Shown: piece after piece, positions 27 through 6,258 of the stretch | How positions within the stretch are numbered: position 1 is the stretch's first letter | Layout: each line of letters starts with the position of its first letter | Origin: Lachnospiraceae bacterium UBA2868 | GTDB taxonomy: Bacteria > Bacillota_A > Clostridia > Lachnospirales > Lachnospiraceae | DNA length: 6,258 nt | Assembly: GCA_002350465.1 (NCBI GenBank) | Contig: DEEW01000031.1 | Location: 1 to 6,258, forward strand | Direction of reading: 5' to 3' | Made by a program: the position numbers and the translations under genes | Notes under the pieces: model-generated | The model's input: the letters and a program-made list of their open reading frames with translations, nothing else | What the model was told of the DNA's origin: nothing | Databases searched by the model: none

Positions 27-1457
27 ATGAACGATCAGATGACGGCGGAGGATCTGGAGCGGATAAACAGGCTTGTTGCGGATACAAAGCGTTTCCTTGA
101 GATGTATGCAACACTTCCCTATGTAAGGGACGAGTTTAACGAAGATTCAGAAGCATTCCTTGCAAAACATCATCTTGATGTCGATCCCGAGGAAATGAAA
201 TTCCTCGTTAATGATGAGTATGCACAGGAGCGTAAAAGGCTGGACGAGGATCCCGATGCCATCGATCTTCTTCCCGAAGCGGCATTTCGATTCAGGCAGT
301 TTCTTGCCAACAAATTCGCGGCAAGAGACATGATGATTGATAAATATTGCAAACCTTCAAACCCCCGCATGATCAAATGGCGCGAGAGGCAGATGAATAG
401 GTGTCTCGCCGGAGTCGGAGGAGTCAACAAGGCATTCGTTCACTGCCCCCTTGCAATCGAGCTGGATCTGGGATGCTCGGTAGGCTGTGATTTCTGCGGG
501 TTGGGAGCTCCGAAACTGCAGAAGATATGCCGTTATACTGAAGAAAATGCCGCAATGTTCAGACAGATCCTGGCCGATGCACACAGGATAATAGGAGATG
601 CGGCAGGGTTCGGAACGCTCTATCTTGCGACGGAGCCGCTTGATAATCCCGATTACGAACTGTTCGAAGGGGATTTTGTCAAAGAGTTCCGGTTCATCCC
701 GCAGATAACCACAGCGGTTGCCGACAGGGATATCGAGAGGACTCGCAGGCTCGTACACAAGCTTTATTCCAGTGCCGGATTCATCCACAGGTTTACATTA
801 AGATCGGTTGAAATGGCGGAGAAGATATTCGCAGAGTTTACTCCCATGGAACTGCTTCGCGTGGAACTCCTACCCATGTTTCCCGAAGCACCGACATTTG
901 TGCCCTTTACCGTTGTAGGCGGCCAGGCAAAACACGTTAAGGAAGAAGATGTAAGGGAGGGTGATCCCGGAACCATATGCTGTGCGGACGGTTTCGTGAT
1001 AAACATGGCTGAAAAGAGCATCAGGCTAATCACGCCATGCCATATGACCGATAAGTTCCCCAACGGTGTTGCCGAGCCGGTGAAGAGATATTTTGAAAGT
1101 GCGGATGAATGTGCAAAGATCATGGAAGAGATAATTGATGAATACATGATAACGGACATTCCGGATGAAGAGCCGCTGCGGCTGTATCCTTATCTTGAAC
1201 GCTGTGAAACGATGTACGGTGACTCGCTGCAAAGCAGGTTCGGGGGCATGATATTTGCGCTCGACAAGCTGTCAAGGCCGTATGCGAAGCGGGTGATCGA
1301 ACTTCTGCAGGACGGTACCTGGAACAAGCATGAAATAGTTCGTATTGTTACCGGCGAATATGATGCGAAACCTGAAAATGTATTCTGGATGCTCAATCAG
1401 TTCTGGAAACAGGGATATATATATGACAGCAGACTTTTCGGAAGCATACAGGCATAA
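27..1457 (+). CDS. Radical SAM RiPP maturase, PoyD-like peptide epimerase family (first paralogue)
   Basis: Probable radical SAM enzyme acting on the precursor encoded two genes downstream. Seen: 476 residues with a CxxxCxxC iron-sulfur/SAM motif at Cys150, Cys154 and Cys157 (GCSVGCDFCG), then GTLYLATEPLDNPDYE near residues 199-214 as a core strand motif, and a C-terminal block with Cys318, Cys319 and Cys338 (TICCADGF...ITPCHMTD). Residues about 410-470 look like a winged-helix or PqqD-like end. Residues 23-60 resemble the precursor leader. Known: CSVGC-x-FCG and the C-terminal TIxCxxGFxINM block recall the RiPP epimerases of the PoyD type, which convert L- to D-residues and use a C-terminal Cys as hydrogen donor. 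Epimerase activity is inferred from these motifs. Start: ATG at 27 has GGAGG only 3 bases upstream, which is tight, and the frame stays open to the left edge, so a more upstream start cannot be excluded. It is followed 17 bases later by its paralogue. Confidence 0.85.
   Translation: MNDQMTAEDLERINRLVADTKRFLEMYATLPYVRDEFNEDSEAFLAKHHLDVDPEEMKFLVNDEYAQERKRLDEDPDAIDLLPEAAFRFRQFLANKFAARDMMIDKYCKPSNPRMIKWRERQMNRCLAGVGGVNKAFVHCPLAIELDLGCSVGCDFCGLGAPKLQKICRYTEENAAMFRQILADAHRIIGDAAGFGTLYLATEPLDNPDYELFEGDFVKEFRFIPQITTAVADRDIERTRRLVHKLYSSAGFIHRFTLRSVEMAEKIFAEFTPMELLRVELLPMFPEAPTFVPFTVVGGQAKHVKEEDVREGDPGTICCADGFVINMAEKSIRLITPCHMTDKFPNGVAEPVKRYFESADECAKIMEEIIDEYMITDIPDEEPLRLYPYLERCETMYGDSLQSRFGGMIFALDKLSRPYAKRVIELLQDGTWNKHEIVRIVTGEYDAKPENVFWMLNQFWKQGYIYDSRLFGSIQA
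93..206 (+). other. Leader-like segment inside the first radical SAM protein
   Basis: Residues 23-60 contain VRDEFNEDSEAFLAKHH, which aligns without gaps with the second paralogue and, more weakly, with the precursor leader (E, F, D and K conserved over 17 positions). Homology is inferred by eye. Confidence 0.5.
632..658 (+). repeat. Direct repeat, copy 1, in the first radical SAM gene
   Basis: The last 20 bases, cttgataatcccgattacga (639-658), recur exactly at 2054-2073, and the bases just upstream differ by only one in the next eight. Both copies encode EPLDNPDY. It marks the two genes as paralogues, and may reflect gene conversion or simply strong constraint. Confidence 0.75.
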
Positions 1458-1460
1458 GAC

Positions 1461-1466
1461 AGGGAG
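1461..1466 (+). promoter_or_regulatory. Ribosome binding site deciding the start of the second radical SAM gene
   Basis: AGGGAG lies 8 bases before the ATG at 1475. A GTG at 1466 is in frame and would add three residues, but it overlaps this site and would have no spacing. I therefore place the start at 1475. Confidence 0.7.
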
Positions 1467-1474
1467 TGGATACC

Positions 1475-2848
1475 ATGGCAGGAAAAGATGTGTATGATGA
1501 TGACAGGGAAGCGATAGGTTGGGTCAAGAGAGTACTGGAATATATAACTATGATCCCCGGATTCGAGGAAGAACTTAAAAAGGATCCGAAGGGCACACTT
1601 GATAAGTACGGCTTTCCTCTTACACCGGAAGATGTAGCACTTTCGCATACGGATCCTGATGATCCGATGCGTCTTGTGGCTGTTTACCCCGAATCAAAGG
1701 GGAAACTGTATGCCGATTTTGTAAATAGGAAGATCAGGACCGTAGCAAAGACAAGGGAAGACTGTACTCCTTCGGAACCAAAGTTTCAAAAATGGAGACA
1801 GCGTCAGATGGATAGGTGCCTTCTGGATCTCGGCCCTCAGAATATGATGATCATCCATACACCTTTGACGTTTGAACTTGCAAATGGATGCTCGGTGGGA
1901 TGCGAATTCTGCGGCCTTAACGCCGGACCTCTTCGCGGACTGTTCAGATATACCGATGAAAATGCCGCACTTTGGAAGGATATACTTGCCCGGGCAAAGG
2001 AACTGTTTGGAAGCGCCGCGGGTGAGGGGACACTGTATTTTGGAACGGAGCCTCTTGATAATCCCGATTACGAGCATTTTAAGGATGATTATTTTAAGGA
2101 ATTCGATAATCTCCCGCAGATAACGACGGCAGTATCCACGAGGAATATTGAAAGGCTTAAGCCGCTTATTAAGGAACTTAATGAGGACGGCAGGTTTATC
2201 TACCGTTTTTCGATCCTCTCGCAGGATATGTTCAAACAGGTATGTGAAGCCTTTACACCGGAGGAGCTTGCGCTGGTGGAACTCCTGCCACAGTATGATG
2301 AGGCTCCGGGAAATCATTTTGCCGATGTCGGAAGAAACGAAGGAAGAACCGGCAAGGAGGCAATAAGCGGGACCATATCATGTGTTTCGGGATTTCTTAT
2401 CAATATGTGCACGAGGACAGTAACACTCACAACGCCAACGTGGGCCAATGATGAGCACCCGGAGGGAATGATCATACTGGCGAAGGAAGAGTTTACTGAT
2501 GCGGAGGATCTCTTTGATAAGATAGGACGGATGATAAAGGAGAATATGAAAGTAACTCTGGAGCCTGATGATATCATATATGCTCCGCCGTATCTTAATG
2601 TAGTACAAAAGGAAGATGATCTGTATGTGGAGAGCGATCGTGGCTCAGCCCTTGTGATACGCGAGAAGAACGGTGAAGCGCTTGTGAAAAAAGTGTTTGA
2701 ATTGGCAAAACAGGGGTGCTATACTAGACGTGAAATTGTGACTGAAATTGTAAATGATACAAAAGTTCCGGCTATCCAGTCTCAATATCTGTTCTTTATG
2801 ATAAACAGGTTGTGGAAAAAGGGCATTTTATCCGTAAAGGAGGGTTAA
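1475..2848 (+). CDS. Radical SAM RiPP maturase, PoyD-like peptide epimerase family (second paralogue)
   Basis: A 457-residue paralogue of the preceding protein, probably acting on the same precursor. Seen: CxxxCxxC at Cys139, Cys143 and Cys146 (GCSVGCEFCGL), the shared blocks WRQRQMDRCL, FRYTDENAA, GTLYFGTEPLDNPDYE and QITTAVS, and a C-terminal TISCVSGFLINM block with Cys303. Where the first paralogue has ITPCHMTD, this one has TTPTWAND (Thr322), so one conserved-looking Cys is missing; Cys312 is private to this copy. The C-terminal 60 or so residues again look like a PqqD-like/winged-helix end. Near the N-terminus, FEEELKKDPKGTLDKYG closely matches the precursor leader. The gene ends directly against the precursor start and its last codons contain that gene's ribosome binding site, so the two are probably translationally coupled. 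Epimerase assignment is inference from motifs; two copies may divide core regions or have different chemistry. Confidence 0.85.
   Translation: MAGKDVYDDDREAIGWVKRVLEYITMIPGFEEELKKDPKGTLDKYGFPLTPEDVALSHTDPDDPMRLVAVYPESKGKLYADFVNRKIRTVAKTREDCTPSEPKFQKWRQRQMDRCLLDLGPQNMMIIHTPLTFELANGCSVGCEFCGLNAGPLRGLFRYTDENAALWKDILARAKELFGSAAGEGTLYFGTEPLDNPDYEHFKDDYFKEFDNLPQITTAVSTRNIERLKPLIKELNEDGRFIYRFSILSQDMFKQVCEAFTPEELALVELLPQYDEAPGNHFADVGRNEGRTGKEAISGTISCVSGFLINMCTRTVTLTTPTWANDEHPEGMIILAKEEFTDAEDLFDKIGRMIKENMKVTLEPDDIIYAPPYLNVVQKEDDLYVESDRGSALVIREKNGEALVKKVFELAKQGCYTRREIVTEIVNDTKVPAIQSQYLFFMINRLWKKGILSVKEG
1532..1645 (+). other. Leader-like segment inside the second radical SAM protein
   Basis: The encoded FEEELKKDPKGTLDKYG matches FKKEFIADPKKVFDKYG of the precursor leader at 9 of 17 positions without gaps. 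This is the F..E...DPK....DKYG pattern typical of nitrile-hydratase-like leaders. Confidence 0.65.
2047..2073 (+). repeat. Direct repeat, copy 2, in the second radical SAM gene
   Basis: Partner of the repeat at 632-658, same reading frame and same encoded motif; identical over 2054-2073. Confidence 0.75.
2836..2844 (+). promoter_or_regulatory. Strong ribosome binding site of the precursor gene
   Basis: AAAGGAGGG lies within the last codons of the second radical SAM gene, 4 bases from the ATG at 2849. The upstream TAA (2846-2848) touches that ATG. This is the strongest Shine-Dalgarno match in the window, fitting a substrate made in larger amounts than its enzymes, and suggests coupled translation. 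Confidence 0.8.
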
Positions 2849-3520
2849 ATGGAAGATAAGAAGAACGTGTCTAAGGAAGAACTGAAGGACTATCTGGGAG
2901 ATCAGGCGACCAAGCTTGGTGAGGTATTCTCACAGTGCTGGGAATCAGAGGATTTCAAGAAGGAGTTCATCGCCGATCCCAAGAAGGTATTTGACAAATA
3001 CGGACTGGAATACAATGATGACAAGGAATACCGTGTTCTCGACACTCCACCCAAGACTGTCATTCAGGTTCTGCCTTATGAGAATACCAAGGCTGGTGTT
3101 AAGGCTATGACTGACAGAATCAACAAGACCGTGGAGGATCTTGCGGATGACGAATCCAAACAGATTCTGCTTGAGGATTGGAAATGGGAAGTATATCAGA
3201 ACACGGAAGATGTATACTACATTCCCATACCGCACAGTCCCGAGAACCTTTCACCGGAAGAGCTTGAGATGGTAAACGGCGGATGTATCATATTTGCCAT
3301 CCTGTTTCTGTTTGAGGCTCAGTCAATAGCTACCACAACGACAGCCGTAACGGAAGCCGAAGTATTTGTCCTTCTTGCCATTGATGTGGCAGTTGCACTC
3401 GAAGCGGCTCTTGCCGCCGCTATAGGTGTGATCGTGGTTGAAGCTTTGGGAGTACTGTCATCGGTTGCCTTTGCCACGCAGGCTACTGCAAATGATTTTG
3501 CGAAGTCGGGGAAAAAATGA
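2849..3520 (+). CDS. RiPP precursor peptide with NHLP (nitrile-hydratase-like) leader, proteusin type
   Basis: A 223-residue substrate peptide. Seen: a leader of 145 residues ending LSPEELEMVNGG, the usual double-glycine site of C39 exporters, then a 78-residue core (Cys146-Lys223). The leader has the NHLP pattern FKKEFIADPKKVFDKYG (residues 36-52) and a strand-like TVIQVLP (70-76). The core is about 64% Ala, Val, Leu, Ile and Phe, with Ala about a quarter. It has a single Cys, as first residue after Gly-Gly, a TTTT run, scattered Glu/Asp, and a short basic tail (KSGKK). Context: directly behind two radical SAM maturases and upstream of an NHLM-type exporter with a C39 peptidase. A hydrophobic core with only one Cys fits epimerisation rather than thioether bridges, and suggests a membrane-active product; both are inference. 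The leader is longer than the roughly 70-90 residues usual for the family. A strong terminator follows the gene. Confidence 0.88.
   Translation: MEDKKNVSKEELKDYLGDQATKLGEVFSQCWESEDFKKEFIADPKKVFDKYGLEYNDDKEYRVLDTPPKTVIQVLPYENTKAGVKAMTDRINKTVEDLADDESKQILLEDWKWEVYQNTEDVYYIPIPHSPENLSPEELEMVNGGCIIFAILFLFEAQSIATTTTAVTEAEVFVLLAIDVAVALEAALAAAIGVIVVEALGVLSSVAFATQATANDFAKSGKK
3272..3286 (+). other. Predicted leader cleavage site (VNGG/Cys)
   Basis: These bases encode Val142-Asn-Gly-Gly145-Cys146, preceded by LSPEELEM. C39 peptidases cut after such Gly-Gly pairs, which would release a core with an N-terminal Cys. The catalytic residues of the matching peptidase are seen at the right edge of the window. 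Confidence 0.8.
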
Positions 3521-3547: not shown

Positions 3548-3580
3548 AAAAGCGCAGACTTAGTCTGCGCTTTTATTATT
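3548..3580 (+). terminator. Intrinsic terminator after the precursor gene
   Basis: AAAAGCGCAGA (3548-3558) and TCTGCGCTTTT (3564-3574) form a perfect 11-bp stem with a CTTAG loop, followed by a T-rich stretch (TTTTATTATTT from 3571). It lies 27 bases after the precursor stop. It would end most transcripts before the immunity and export genes, or stabilise the 3' end of the precursor mRNA. Confidence 0.92.
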
Positions 3581-3628: not shown

Positions 3629-3658
3629 TTTACAATGAAGCACATCATATGGTATTAT
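3629..3658 (+). promoter_or_regulatory. Candidate sigma-A promoter for the immunity/export block
   Basis: TTTACA (3629-3634) and TATTAT (3653-3658) are each one base from consensus, with an 18-base spacer. The position between a strong terminator and the next gene supports it. Transcription would start near 3665, leaving a leader of about 80 bases. Confidence 0.6.
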
Positions 3659-3747: not shown

Positions 3748-4119
3748 ATGTTAATGGGGCTTAATATAATGTTTGTGGTTTGTCTGATAATTATTCCTGT
3801 TGTTGCGATCATTACCGGTTATATCATGAAAACAAGACCTCCCAAAGAGATTAATAACACTGTAGGATACAGAACCAGACGTTCAAAGGCAAGTCAGGAG
3901 GCCTGGGATTTCGCCAACGTATATTGCGGTAAGAATACGTTTATCTATGGAATCGTATCTCTTCCGGTAAGCATAGTTTTCTATGCACTGTTAACAGTGT
4001 CTGTACACTGGGGTGAGCTTCTGGCAATGCTCGTTGTTATCCTTGTGCAGACTGTAACGATGACAATAGCTATGATTGTATCGACTGAGATGAAGCTCAA
4101 GGAAAAGTTCGGCGAGTAG
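3748..4119 (+). CDS. SdpI-family small membrane protein, candidate self-immunity protein
   Basis: A 123-residue protein with three predicted membrane segments (about residues 5-25, 64-85 and 88-111). Between the first two lies NNTVGYRTRRSKASQEAWDFAN-type sequence (residues 36-57), whose N..VGYRT......EAW..AN pattern is the signature of the SdpI family. In Bacillus subtilis SdpI protects cells from the SdpC killing peptide. Here, between a hydrophobic precursor and its exporter, it most likely protects the producer from its own product; this is inference from context, since other SdpI-family proteins have unknown roles. Start: ATG at 3748 has GGAGG 6 bases upstream; a second ATG two codons later is possible. 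It is the first gene after the promoter and 29 bases ahead of the secretion gene, so probably co-transcribed with export. Confidence 0.82.
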   Translation: MLMGLNIMFVVCLIIIPVVAIITGYIMKTRPPKEINNTVGYRTRRSKASQEAWDFANVYCGKNTFIYGIVSLPVSIVFYALLTVSVHWGELLAMLVVILVQTVTMTIAMIVSTEMKLKEKFGE

Positions 4120-4148: not shown

Positions 4149-5855
4149 TTGAAGGGCGCATATAACAAAGAAGCACTGAATAGAGTTGCTGCACAGGACA
4201 AGCTTGACCGGATGATCATTCTTGTATCTCCTGTTGCGTGGATATCTATCATCGGTGCTTTTATCATTATTGCAGGGCTTTTGATATGGGGTAATTTCGG
4301 CTCACTTCCGACAAAGGTTGATACAAGCGGGATATATCTTAATGCAGAGGGAGCCGATTATATTTATTCGCAGATCGAAGGGTTTGTTGTTTCTGTAAAC
4401 ATAAATGACGAGGATTTTGTTCATGTCGGAGATGTGGTAGCAACCATAGGGGATGAAGAGGATATATTCAAGATCAAACAGCTTGATACAAGGATTCAGT
4501 ATGTCGAGAATATGACTTTTGATTCCGAAATGGACGTTGTGACAACGGATACCGAAAATATGGCACAGATCAAGCTGTCGGCTCAAAATGCTGATAAGGA
4601 TGCCATAAGTGCCAAGGCAGAACTTGAGCTCAAGAAGGAAAAACTTCCCGAGGCTAAGGCGGTTGCCGAGGAGAAGGAAGCACAGATGCTTGCATACAAG
4701 CAGCAGTTTTTTGCTACATTAAGTATTACAGATCAGGAGCCGCAGCTTAAATATAACGAAGCCAATACAGATTACGAAACATATTACTCCAGATACGAGT
4801 CTGCCAAGAATAACTATATTTCCTTGCAGGAAGCTTATTATTCGGCGCAGGAGGCTTTTGATGCCAGGTACTACAACTTCGATGCCCTTGAGCATACCGA
4901 AGAGGAGAGAAACGCATACGATGCAGGTCTTGCAGATCTTGAAGCCAAGGAAGCGGCCGCCAATGATGCAAGAGTATTAATGGAGAGAGAAGAAGAGAAT
5001 GTAAGGTCTGCAAACACCAGCCTTGACGCAGCCAGAAAATCATACCTTGAATACGTGAACGGACTGTCCGCTACAACGGCTCAAAATACCATTGCTTCAA
5101 CCGAGTATTCCGAAGTTTTGCAGGATTACTATAACGCCAAAGCGGCTTACAAGTCGTTAAAGGACGAGATAGATGAACTGGAGCTTAAGAGCGTTCTTGC
5201 GGAGGGCGAGGGAGAGCTCGATGCGGAGAACTATGAGCAGCAGTTTAATAATGAGAAATCCGCGGTGCTTATCGACCTTAAGGCCCAAAGGGAGGCTCTT
5301 CTGAATAAGGCTGCAAAGGGTGAGATCAAATCTACCGTGGACGGTAAAGTATATGATGTTGCAATTTCAGAAGGTCAGGCCATAAGCGAAGGAGGAAGGG
5401 TTGCATCCCTGCTGTCGGGAGATTTGGGCAATGATCAGGCTATCTGCTATGTAAAGCTTGCTGACGCATTCAAGCTCCAGCCGGGTATGAAGGCATACAT
5501 TTATCCTTCCACAGTTGATAAGCAGGAGTACGGGCATATTGAGGGTGTTGTTGATACTATCAGCAGTCATGTTGCATCTGAGGAAGATCTGAAAATGCAG
5601 ATCGCAAGTGATGAAGTAATAAGGGATATAGAGAAGGAAGGATCGGTTGTGGAGGTCAGATGCCGCTTGGAGCGTGATCCCATGACTGCAAGCGGATATA
5701 CATGGAGCACCAAAAAAGGAAAAGATATCAAGCTTTCCACAGGTACACTTGTGTCCGCCACTATCATTACAGAGAACAAGAAGCCCATAGAATTATTGAT
5801 TCCGTATCTGAAAAACAAGCTTGATTTTGTCGAGGAAGAAGATGAAACAACCTAA
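4149..5855 (+). CDS. HlyD-like secretion (membrane fusion) protein of NHLM type
   Basis: Accessory protein that would pair with the downstream ABC exporter to move the mature peptide across the envelope. Seen: 568 residues with a short cytoplasmic N-terminus (NKEALNRVAAQDKLDRM), a single membrane anchor at about 23-48, a first lipoyl-like half (about 72-102), a long Ala/Glu/Lys-rich coiled coil (about 135-385), the second lipoyl half (KAAKGEIKSTVDGKVYDVAI, about 387-424) and a beta-barrel region ending in PIELLIPYLK. The N-terminus (KEAL.R....DKLD), the W..WG anchor end and the closing SGYTWS...PIELLIPYLK fit the NHLM-system HlyD proteins. As I recall that family is nearer 400 residues, so the coiled coil is enlarged here. 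The start is TTG, chosen for its ribosome binding site and family-like N-terminus. It overlaps the exporter gene by 14 bases, indicating tight coupling. Confidence 0.87.
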   Translation: MKGAYNKEALNRVAAQDKLDRMIILVSPVAWISIIGAFIIIAGLLIWGNFGSLPTKVDTSGIYLNAEGADYIYSQIEGFVVSVNINDEDFVHVGDVVATIGDEEDIFKIKQLDTRIQYVENMTFDSEMDVVTTDTENMAQIKLSAQNADKDAISAKAELELKKEKLPEAKAVAEEKEAQMLAYKQQFFATLSITDQEPQLKYNEANTDYETYYSRYESAKNNYISLQEAYYSAQEAFDARYYNFDALEHTEEERNAYDAGLADLEAKEAAANDARVLMEREEENVRSANTSLDAARKSYLEYVNGLSATTAQNTIASTEYSEVLQDYYNAKAAYKSLKDEIDELELKSVLAEGEGELDAENYEQQFNNEKSAVLIDLKAQREALLNKAAKGEIKSTVDGKVYDVAISEGQAISEGGRVASLLSGDLGNDQAICYVKLADAFKLQPGMKAYIYPSTVDKQEYGHIEGVVDTISSHVASEEDLKMQIASDEVIRDIEKEGSVVEVRCRLERDPMTASGYTWSTKKGKDIKLSTGTLVSATIITENKKPIELLIPYLKNKLDFVEEEDETT

Positions 5856-6258
5856 GCAGGCTTCCCCCGAAGAGATCGCGCGCAGATATCACAAGGAGAG
5901 CAAAAAAGAGAAGAAGAGGAAGGTACATGTAGAGTACGTCAAGACTCCCACCGTATACCAGATGGAGGTCAATGAATGCGGAGCAGCATCCCTTTCAATG
6001 ATACTCCAGTATTACGGGAGATACGTGCCCCTTGAAGAACTCCGCGTGGAAACCGGTGTGTCCAGAAACGGCTGTAACGCCAAGAACATATACTATGCAG
6101 CAGAAAAATACAATCTCGAGGTGACGGCCAGTCGCAGGGATCTGGATCGTATGCTCGCCAAGAATCATCCACCCTGCATCCTGCACTGGAATTTCTCGCA
6201 CTTTGTCGTTTTTGAGGGCGAGAAGTTCGGAAAGTATTATATTAATGATCCCCAGCAG
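5842..6258 (+). CDS. C39-peptidase ABC exporter of NHLM type, N-terminal part (cut by window edge)
   Basis: The first 139 residues of a bacteriocin exporter that cleaves leaders and transports the product. Seen: a lysine-rich N-terminus (KKEKKRK), then a C39 peptidase domain with oxyanion-hole Gln40, catalytic Cys46 (VYQMEVNECGAASL), His120 (SHFVVF) and Asp136 (NDPQ), so the peptidase appears intact. The frame is open to the edge, and the membrane and ATP-binding domains should lie beyond it. Start: ATG at 5842, with AGGA 5 bases upstream, overlapping the end of the HlyD gene by 14 bases. It should cut after Gly-Gly145 of the precursor. NHLM systems often have a second ABC protein, which could follow outside the window. 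Confidence 0.9.
   Translation, partial: MKQPKQASPEEIARRYHKESKKEKKRKVHVEYVKTPTVYQMEVNECGAASLSMILQYYGRYVPLEELRVETGVSRNGCNAKNIYYAAEKYNLEVTASRRDLDRMLAKNHPPCILHWNFSHFVVFEGEKFGKYYINDPQQ

What the first reader, a model, noticed from the sequence alone, without database searches (positions are those of the whole stretch)
27..3520. Tandem PoyD-like enzymes with a hydrophobic proteusin: a candidate D-amino-acid membrane-active peptide
Two radical SAM paralogues with CSVGCxFCG, one NHLP-leader precursor with an aliphatic core, an SdpI-like protein and an NHLM exporter make a compact, coherent cluster. Known proteusins such as polytheonamides combine epimerases with Val/Ala-rich cores, but the long Ala/Leu/Ile core seen here, paired with SdpI-type protection, is not one I recognise. 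No methyltransferase or dehydratase is visible in the window.
Basis: partly seen in the sequence, partly recalled or inferred. Interest (0 to 1): 0.75.

Follow-up and report, generated by a model that had tools for sequence, protein, structure and literature searches.

The report
Double-epimerase peptide cluster in Lachnospiraceae
A gut bacterium carries genes for a long, oily peptide that two related enzymes probably rewrite with mirror-image amino acids, and the spacing of its polar residues suggests that it coils into a gramicidin-like tube; it extends a known peptide class with an unusual pair of enzymes and a surface-protein partner.

Summary
Both radical SAM proteins pass the PoyD-family cut-off (TIGR04517: 378 and 414 bits, cut-off 325) and keep the family's conserved extra cysteine; the precursor passes the NHLP-leader cut-off; SdpI, HlyD and C39-ABC genes follow. 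A close relative (95-97% identical) in a Lachnospiraceae MAG adds a second exporter ATPase and an InlB-repeat lipoprotein.

New: (1) the enzymes fall in sister clades (96 and 105 sequences); each of ten complete loci has one of each. (2) Polar core residues recur about every 6.3-6.4 positions (lag 6 significant in 43 of 54 cores, 0 of 127 membrane controls), the pitch of a D,L beta-6.3 helix. (3) The repeat protein's C-terminal domain, without family match, is in 9 of 11 tandem-type genomes (6 of the 9 supplied the model) and 0 of 7 others. (4) SdpI lies in 6 of 11 loci. (5) A RiPP C-methyltransferase is in 2 of 11 tandem genomes, 4 of 5 others.

Best reading: a proteusin epimerised by two paralogues into a long gramicidin-like helix. 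D-residues, channel and immunity are inferred. New variant of a known kind.

The parts
27..1457 (+). rSAM1: PoyD-family radical SAM peptide epimerase, paralogue 1 (possibly 11 codons longer, start off the window)
   Evidence: TIGR04517 377.6 bits, cut-off 325; clade of 96, support 0.993; model pLDDT 88
474..497 (+). [4Fe-4S] motif CSVGCDFC of rSAM1 (C150, C154, C157)
   Evidence: each cysteine in 312 of 312 aligned PoyD-family sequences
981..983 (+). rSAM1 Cys319, proposed hydrogen-atom donor
   Evidence: Cys in 308 of 312; role of PoyD Cys372 from passages of PMC8326336; that the two positions correspond is inferred from conservation, PoyD itself was not aligned
1466..2848 (+). rSAM2: PoyD-family radical SAM peptide epimerase, paralogue 2
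   Evidence: TIGR04517 413.6 bits; clade of 105, support 1.0
1889..1912 (+). [4Fe-4S] motif CSVGCEFC of rSAM2 (C142, C146, C149)
2381..2383 (+). rSAM2 Cys306, proposed hydrogen-atom donor
   Evidence: Cys in 105 of 105 of the rSAM2 clade
2849..3283 (+). NHLP leader of the precursor (145 aa, ends ...NGG)
   Evidence: TIGR03793 55 bits, cut-off 50.9; alignment of 37
3284..3517 (+). core peptide (78 aa, starts with Cys; first 74 aa taken as hydrophobic part, with polar residues 6 apart)
   Evidence: Cys1 in 102 of 103 cores; lag-6 p = 0.0005 for this core alone; the 12 polar pairs are listed
3548..3574 (+). terminator-like hairpin after the precursor gene
   Evidence: 12-pair stem and T-rich tail
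3629..3658 (+). promoter-like site before SdpI and the exporter genes (weak)
   Evidence: 10 of 12 consensus matches; 4 sites found in the stretch against 2.1 expected
3748..4119 (+). SdpI/YfhL-type membrane protein (123 aa), probable self-protection
   Evidence: PF13630 56.9 bits, cut-off 28.2; in 6 of 11 tandem loci
4149..5855 (+). NHLM HlyD-type export adaptor
   Evidence: TIGR03794 219.8 bits, cut-off 156.2
5842..6258 (+). NHLM ABC1 exporter with C39 peptidase, 5' part only (window ends)
   Evidence: TIGR03796 150 bits over profile positions 1-104; Peptidase_C39 98 bits; the full L001 gene scores 884 against 853

Best explanation
The window holds most of a proteusin cluster. The ribosome makes a 223-aa precursor: an NHLP leader and a 78-residue Ala/Val-rich core. 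Two PoyD-family radical SAM epimerases, old paralogues kept as a pair, abstract C-alpha hydrogens along the core and return them from an enzyme cysteine on the other face, giving many D-residues, probably alternating. The NHLM exporter cuts after Gly-Gly, leaving Cys1, and secretes the peptide. The D,L core coils into a beta-6.3 helix, about 12 turns in its 74-residue hydrophobic part, in which polar residues six apart line up along the tube, so it should insert into membranes like gramicidin or polytheonamide. The SdpI/YfhL protein probably protects the producer, and the InlB-repeat surface protein encoded next to the cluster in relatives is an external partner (receptor, display scaffold or sink). 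Shown by sequence: families, motifs, paralogue history, periodicity, gene association. Inferred: epimerisation and its pattern, helix, membrane action, protection, partner role.
For: Family matches above cut-off. Cluster cysteines in 312 of 312, further cysteine in 308 of 312. Sister clades for the two enzymes, one of each in all ten loci L001-L010. Weak best PDB fold matches of rSAM1: BtrN, EpeE, RRE domains. Polar autocorrelation in 54 non-redundant cores: lag 6 z = 16, lag 7 z = 10, lag 1 z = 9, lag 13 z = 4, nothing at 3 or 4; 127 membrane controls peak at 3-5. Lag 6 at p < 0.05 in 43 of 54 cores, 0 of 127 controls; this core alone p = 0.0005; six cores beside PoyD genes in other phyla z = 6.0. 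Estimated repeat 6.37 (95% 6.30-6.42) from the first turn and 6.39 (6.21-6.66) from the second; 27 leaders of the same proteins have a lag-6 deficit. Gramicidin's helix has 6.3 residues per turn, and polar residues six apart are proposed to brace it (PMC7531004, passages). SdpI in 6 of 11 tandem loci, against about 0.4% expected per locus.
Against: No product is known and no D-residue has been measured. A 74-residue beta-helix would be about 68 A long by scaling (polytheonamide: 49 residues, about 45 A), longer than a bilayer. Charged Glu/Asp in the core would be costly in lipid. The cores are homologous, so z-scores overstate independence; in the 27-core and 7-core sets lag 6 stays at z 12.8 and 5.9 but lag 13 falls to 1.5 and 0.8, and the 27-core second-turn estimate is wide (6.26, 5.94-6.74). 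The Fourier scan is less clean: z at period 6.3 is 6.0, 2.4 and -0.2 in the three sets, and the window's core alone peaks at 3.0 with maxima at 5.1 and 6.8. Even-lag parity, expected if polar residues share one chirality, is absent in the family (even fraction 0.490 against 0.497), present only in L009. No SdpI gene was found in the fetched stretch of 5 of 11 tandem loci. Neither enzyme passes Pfam's general Radical_SAM cut-off.
Confidence: 0.6

Rival explanations
1. The enzymes epimerise only a few residues, and the product is an ordinary membrane-active or signalling peptide that does not form a beta-helix; the polar periodicity reflects enzyme recognition spacing rather than fold.
For: The epimerases PlpD, OspD and AvpD give products with a limited number of epimerisations (PMC8326336 passages); the relative CcaD was inferred to act late, with one residue reported largely in the D-form (PMC10676384 passages).
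Against: The estimated repeat is 6.3-6.4, not an integer, and persists to a second turn in the 54-core set; the cores are long and Val/Ala-rich.
Confidence: 0.2
2. One or both enzymes do another C-alpha-radical reaction, for example linking the invariant core Cys1 to an alpha-carbon (thioether), so the family match misleads.
For: Cys1 is in 102 of 103 cores and usually the only core Cys (5 cores have another), which epimerisation does not explain. Four rSAM1 proteins (one clade, including that of L007) lack the conserved Cys but have two others nearby.
Against: Both window enzymes keep the conserved Cys and exceed the epimerase cut-off.
Confidence: 0.08
3. The core is an all-L hexapeptide-repeat or fibre-forming surface peptide that works with the InlB-repeat protein in adhesion or biofilm, not a channel.
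For: A repeat surface protein is the steady neighbour; lag 6 dominates.
Against: A hexapeptide left-handed beta-helix (recalled) would give lags 6, 12, 18; here 7 and 13 are enriched and 12 and 18 are not in the full 54-core set (without the first 25 residues lag 12 has z 2.7). It gives no role to the epimerases.
Confidence: 0.08

Closest known systems
Polytheonamide cluster (PoyA/PoyD, Entotheonella) and aeronamide
   Same: NHLP leader, PoyD-family epimerase, hydrophobic core; beta-helix known there and expected here; N-terminus more hydrophobic than C-terminus (PMC8183687 section 6; aeronamide called a beta-helical peptide in PMC10676384 passages)
   Different: No methyltransferase or dehydratase in the window and no RiPP C-methyltransferase over cut-off in the held genome of the nearest relative; two epimerases; hydrophobic part about 75 residues instead of 49; SdpI gene and repeat surface protein; Cys1. 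The Poy gene set is recalled, not fetched
Cyanobacterial proteusins of the OspD/PlpD/AvpD type
   Same: PoyD-family enzyme with the same conserved Cys (L053, a Kamptonema locus, used as stand-in)
   Different: Limited number of epimerisations reported (PMC8326336 passages); L053 enzyme 34% identical to rSAM1
Selenomonadaceae proteusins (L011-L030, L033)
   Same: PoyD-family enzyme, NHLP leader, NHLM-like exporter genes in several; lag-6 and lag-7 polar excess (z 5.0 and 4.8 in 12 of 16 cores, besides lags 3 and 10)
   Different: Usually one epimerase (L029 has two, outside both clades); the gene beside it is a RiPP C-methyltransferase (TIGR03975, 2 of 2 scanned); cores of median 48 aa (16 cores)
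Epipeptides (EpeE/YydG)
   Same: Radical SAM C-alpha epimerisation with an enzyme Cys; EpeE is the second-ranked fold match of rSAM1
   Different: Different leader and enzyme family; two iron-sulfur clusters in EpeE (PMC8326336 passages)

Membership tests
PoyD-type RiPP epimerase (TIGR04517) | Whole-protein score above the curated cut-off | tested here: met
   377.6 and 413.6 bits against 325
PoyD-type RiPP epimerase (TIGR04517) | CxxxCxxC radical SAM motif | tested here: met
   312 of 312 at each Cys, both window proteins included
PoyD-type RiPP epimerase (TIGR04517) | Single further conserved Cys (hydrogen donor) | tested here: met
   C319 and C306 in the column with Cys in 308 of 312; identity with PoyD Cys372 inferred, PoyD not aligned
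PoyD-type RiPP epimerase (TIGR04517) | C-terminal RRE | tested here: inconclusive
   RRE chains (6jx3, 5v1v, 5sxy) among fold matches of rSAM1, prob 0.97-1.0 but E 0.018-0.21; aligned range not shown
PoyD-type RiPP epimerase (TIGR04517) | L-to-D conversion of core residues | not testable with these tools
   needs D2O labelling and LC-MS
Proteusin (NHLP RiPP) | Nitrile-hydratase-like leader above cut-off | tested here: met
   TIGR03793 55 bits against 50.9
Proteusin (NHLP RiPP) | Double-Gly site and C39/NHLM export genes | tested here: met
   NGG followed by Cys in 102 of 103; TIGR03794 and C39 domain; TIGR03796/97 in L001
Polytheonamide-type channel | RiPP C-methyltransferase (TIGR03975) with the epimerase | tested here: not met
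   none in the window; over cut-off in 2 of 11 tandem-type genomes (G403, on another contig than the cluster; G408, contig relation not checked), not in G001. N-methyltransferase and dehydratase: only by reading
Polytheonamide-type channel | D,L beta-6.3 helix | tested here: inconclusive
   polar spacing 6.3-6.4 is consistent; no structure
SdpI/YfhL immunity protein | PF13630 domain | tested here: met
   56.9 bits, cut-off 28.2
SdpI/YfhL immunity protein | Protection against the cognate peptide | not testable with these tools
   needs a sensitivity test with and without the gene

The most novel reading that the evidence does not exclude
Lachnospiraceae make a class of extra-long, unmethylated D,L beta-helical tubes by epimerisation alone: two paralogous epimerases divide the core (by segment or by register), Cys1 ties the N-terminus to a partner, and a repeat lipoprotein holds the roughly 70 A tube at the cell surface as a wall-spanning channel or weapon.
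Probability: 0.2. Interest if true: 0.85.

Novelty: new variant of a known kind. Interest (0 to 1): 0.62.

Why it matters
It suggests that gramicidin-like D,L beta-helices can be ribosomal products of gut bacteria made with one kind of modification only, so the sequence rules of such tubes (polar ladders about 6.3 residues apart) become testable in a minimal system of one precursor and two enzymes. A fixed pair of epimerase paralogues gives a natural experiment on how D-patterns are chosen. The associated surface protein offers a lead on what proteusins do for their producers, which a review calls largely unknown (PMC8326336 passages).

Tried and rejected

The literature claim rests on searches of the open-licence library only: no listed paper showed, in its title or abstract start or in the passages I read, a two-epimerase Lachnospiraceae proteusin. 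The JACS 2018 PoyD paper and the Sci Rep 2014 channel paper were not held.

Full report
WHAT IS THERE. The window reads rSAM1 (27-1457), rSAM2 (1466-2848), precursor (2849-3520), a terminator-like hairpin (3548-3574), SdpI-type protein (3748-4119), HlyD adaptor (4149-5855) and the start of a C39-ABC exporter (5842-6258, cut by the window). Both radical SAM proteins exceed the cut-off of TIGR04517, 'radical SAM family RiPP maturation amino acid epimerase', with 377.6 and 413.6 bits against 325; the precursor exceeds TIGR03793; the SdpI and HlyD assignments pass their cut-offs and the C39 domain is clear. Neither enzyme passes Pfam's general Radical_SAM cut-off. No whole genome of the window is held. 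The nearest locus, L001, in an uncultured Lachnospiraceae MAG, matches 97.2% over the first 3534 bases and 94.9% over most of the rest. It completes the cluster: full ABC1 (TIGR03796, 884 bits against 853), ABC2 (TIGR03797, 723 against 709), then a 788-aa protein with a lipobox-like start (by eye) and five InlB B-repeat stretches (PF18998).

THE TWO ENZYMES ARE OLD PARALOGUES. In an alignment of 312 PoyD-family proteins (window, the listed relatives over 420 aa, and ORFs of the 78 loci; identical ones dropped) the three cluster cysteines are in 312 of 312, and one further cysteine (C319 of rSAM1, C306 of rSAM2) in 308 of 312. A review states that PoyD homologues share a single strictly conserved Cys, Cys372, proposed as hydrogen donor, whose Ala mutant fails in vivo (PMC8326336, passages read); I take the two to be the same site, by conservation, not by aligning PoyD. 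A FastTree tree, rooted at its midpoint, puts rSAM1 in a clade of 96 (support 0.993) and rSAM2 in a clade of 105 (1.0), which are sisters (203 tips, 0.993; two more tips from the rSAM1 list join the rSAM1 side with support 0.007). So one duplication preceded the spread of the cluster. Each of the ten loci L001-L010 has exactly one of each clade and a precursor; L035 is an eleventh, cut inside rSAM1. The usual order is rSAM1-rSAM2; it is reversed in L006, and L007 has other genes between them. In the lists pairs share the same longest-contig length (my count), which suggests further pairs. The four exceptions to the further cysteine form one rSAM1 clade (P0186, P0188, P0189, P0191) that has Ala there and two cysteines 5 and 9 residues on. 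The rSAM1 model (pLDDT 88) finds only weak PDB matches, BtrN, EpeE and RRE domains first.

THE CORE. Of 105 precursors gathered (window, 103 relatives, L009), 103 show the GG pattern; Cys follows it in 102 of them (L009 has Phe). The cores are 54-121 aa with a hydrophobic part of median 76, made mostly of Ala and Val, several with a basic tail. In 54 non-redundant cores polar residues are in excess at lag 6 (z 16), lag 7 (z 10), lag 1 (z 9) and lag 13 (z 4), with nothing at lags 3 and 4; without the first 25 residues lag 6 is still z 12.8; in 27 and 7 stricter representatives it is 12.8 and 5.9, while lag 13 fades to 1.5 and 0.8. Membrane stretches from other ORFs of the loci (127) peak at 3, 4 and 5 with nothing at 6. 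One by one, 43 of 54 cores and 0 of 127 controls pass p < 0.05 at lag 6; the window's core has p = 0.0005, the floor of 2000 shuffles; six hand-chosen cores from other phyla give z 6.0. The repeat is estimated at 6.37 (6.30-6.42) from lags 6-7 and 6.39 (6.21-6.66) from lags 12-13; an estimate from lags 6-7 must fall between 6 and 7, so the second one is the more telling, and in the 27-core set it is wide (6.26, 5.94-6.74). Twenty-seven leaders of the same proteins have a deficit at lag 6. Gramicidin's helix has 6.3 residues per turn, and polar residues six apart were proposed to brace it (PMC7531004, passages). Against this: no even-lag parity in the family, and a less clean Fourier scan. The pattern may be a property of epimerase-linked proteusin cores in general, since 12 Selenomonad-type cores show lags 6 and 7 too, with lags 3 and 10.

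THE PARTNERS. The repeat protein's C-terminal domain (alignment A3, six loci, 23-38% identity to the first) has no Pfam or NCBIfam match when scanned from L003 alone. In 18 genomes behind the loci it is found in 9, those of L001-L007, L009 and L010; six of these supplied the model, so the independent count is 3 of 5 tandem-type genomes (L002, L004, L007 yes; L008, whose gene runs off its contig, and L035 no) against 0 of 7 of other types. In 397 genomes drawn from the family of G001 it is found in 5, strongly in 3 (G001, itself in the model; G002; a 96-aa open frame in G030); TIGR04517 is found in 3 of the 397. An InlB-repeat or A3-domain gene sits beside the cluster in each of L001-L010; PF18998 was confirmed in the nine of them that were scanned (all but L007). 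In L002 the gene seems split over two contig ends (inference). SdpI-domain genes: 103 places in 72 of 150 family genomes, so one within about 17 kb by chance has a probability near 0.4%; it is there in 6 of 11 tandem loci (L001, L003, L005-L008). The chance figure for 6 of 10, about 7e-13, assumes a 3-Mb genome and independent loci. A RiPP radical SAM C-methyltransferase (TIGR03975) is over cut-off in 2 of 11 tandem-type genomes (in G403 on another contig than the cluster) and in 4 of 5 other-type genomes searched, which supports a pathway without C-methylation; MAGs may be incomplete.

HOW IT PROBABLY WORKS. Shown: gene families, conserved residues, paralogue history, core periodicity and steady neighbours. 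Inferred: the epimerases rewrite the core, probably at alternate positions as PoyD does (PMC8326336 passages); the exporter cuts at Gly-Gly; the D,L core forms a beta-6.3 helix that enters membranes; SdpI protects; the repeat protein meets the peptide outside the cell. Two enzymes may serve two segments or two registers of a long core, but short tandem cores (L002, 54 aa) show that length alone does not explain the pair.

WHAT IS KNOWN. Proteusins and PoyD epimerases are established (PMC8326336 and PMC10676384: passages; PMC8183687: section 6 and passages). Two ruminant surveys were seen in passages only: one lists proteusin as a class with a count of 2, the other names it among classes absent from digesta MAGs (PMC13289728, PMC12918008). 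I found no held paper on this cluster type, but most subscription journals are not in the library. Verdict: a new variant of a known kind, well supported as a gene system, untested as chemistry.

Noticed in passing
window 1466-1640 (rSAM2 N-terminus) and the same region of the family: The N-terminus of the PoyD family resembles the NHLP leader (rSAM2: NF038399 19.5 bits, below its cut-off of 40; hhalign probability 85%), as if the enzyme carried a copy of its substrate's leader fold.
   Followed up: partly
P0186 (L007), P0188, P0189, P0191: One clade of rSAM1 enzymes has Ala in place of the family-wide conserved Cys and two cysteines 5 and 9 residues on; their chemistry may differ.
   Followed up: partly
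L009:3005-3736: This precursor has Phe instead of Cys1 and Asn residues spaced 6, 6, 6, 4, 2, 4, 2, all even, the clearest beta-helix-like ladder seen.
   Followed up: partly
L001 upstream flank and L090: In the nearest relative a large cobalamin-biosynthesis gene set (named by reading) lies just upstream of the cluster, although no B12-dependent enzyme is seen in the cluster; not checked in others.
   Followed up: no
L001:9747-9917: Small ORF (56 aa from its internal ATG) just before rSAM1 without NCBIfam match; no phmmer relative among the other loci.
   Followed up: partly
L089:14778-16517 (minus): 580-aa lipoprotein-like protein without Pfam or NCBIfam match, directly downstream of the repeat lipoprotein.
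   Followed up: partly
core C-termini of several relatives (for example P0022, P0028, P0030): Recurrent basic tails (DPRKRGR, DPRRRGR) end several cores; possible anchor or orientation signal.
   Followed up: no
G403:C382:1134-3005 and G408:C129:1030-2805: Two tandem-type genomes also hold a RiPP C-methyltransferase gene; in G403 it is away from the cluster, perhaps part of another RiPP cluster.
   Followed up: no
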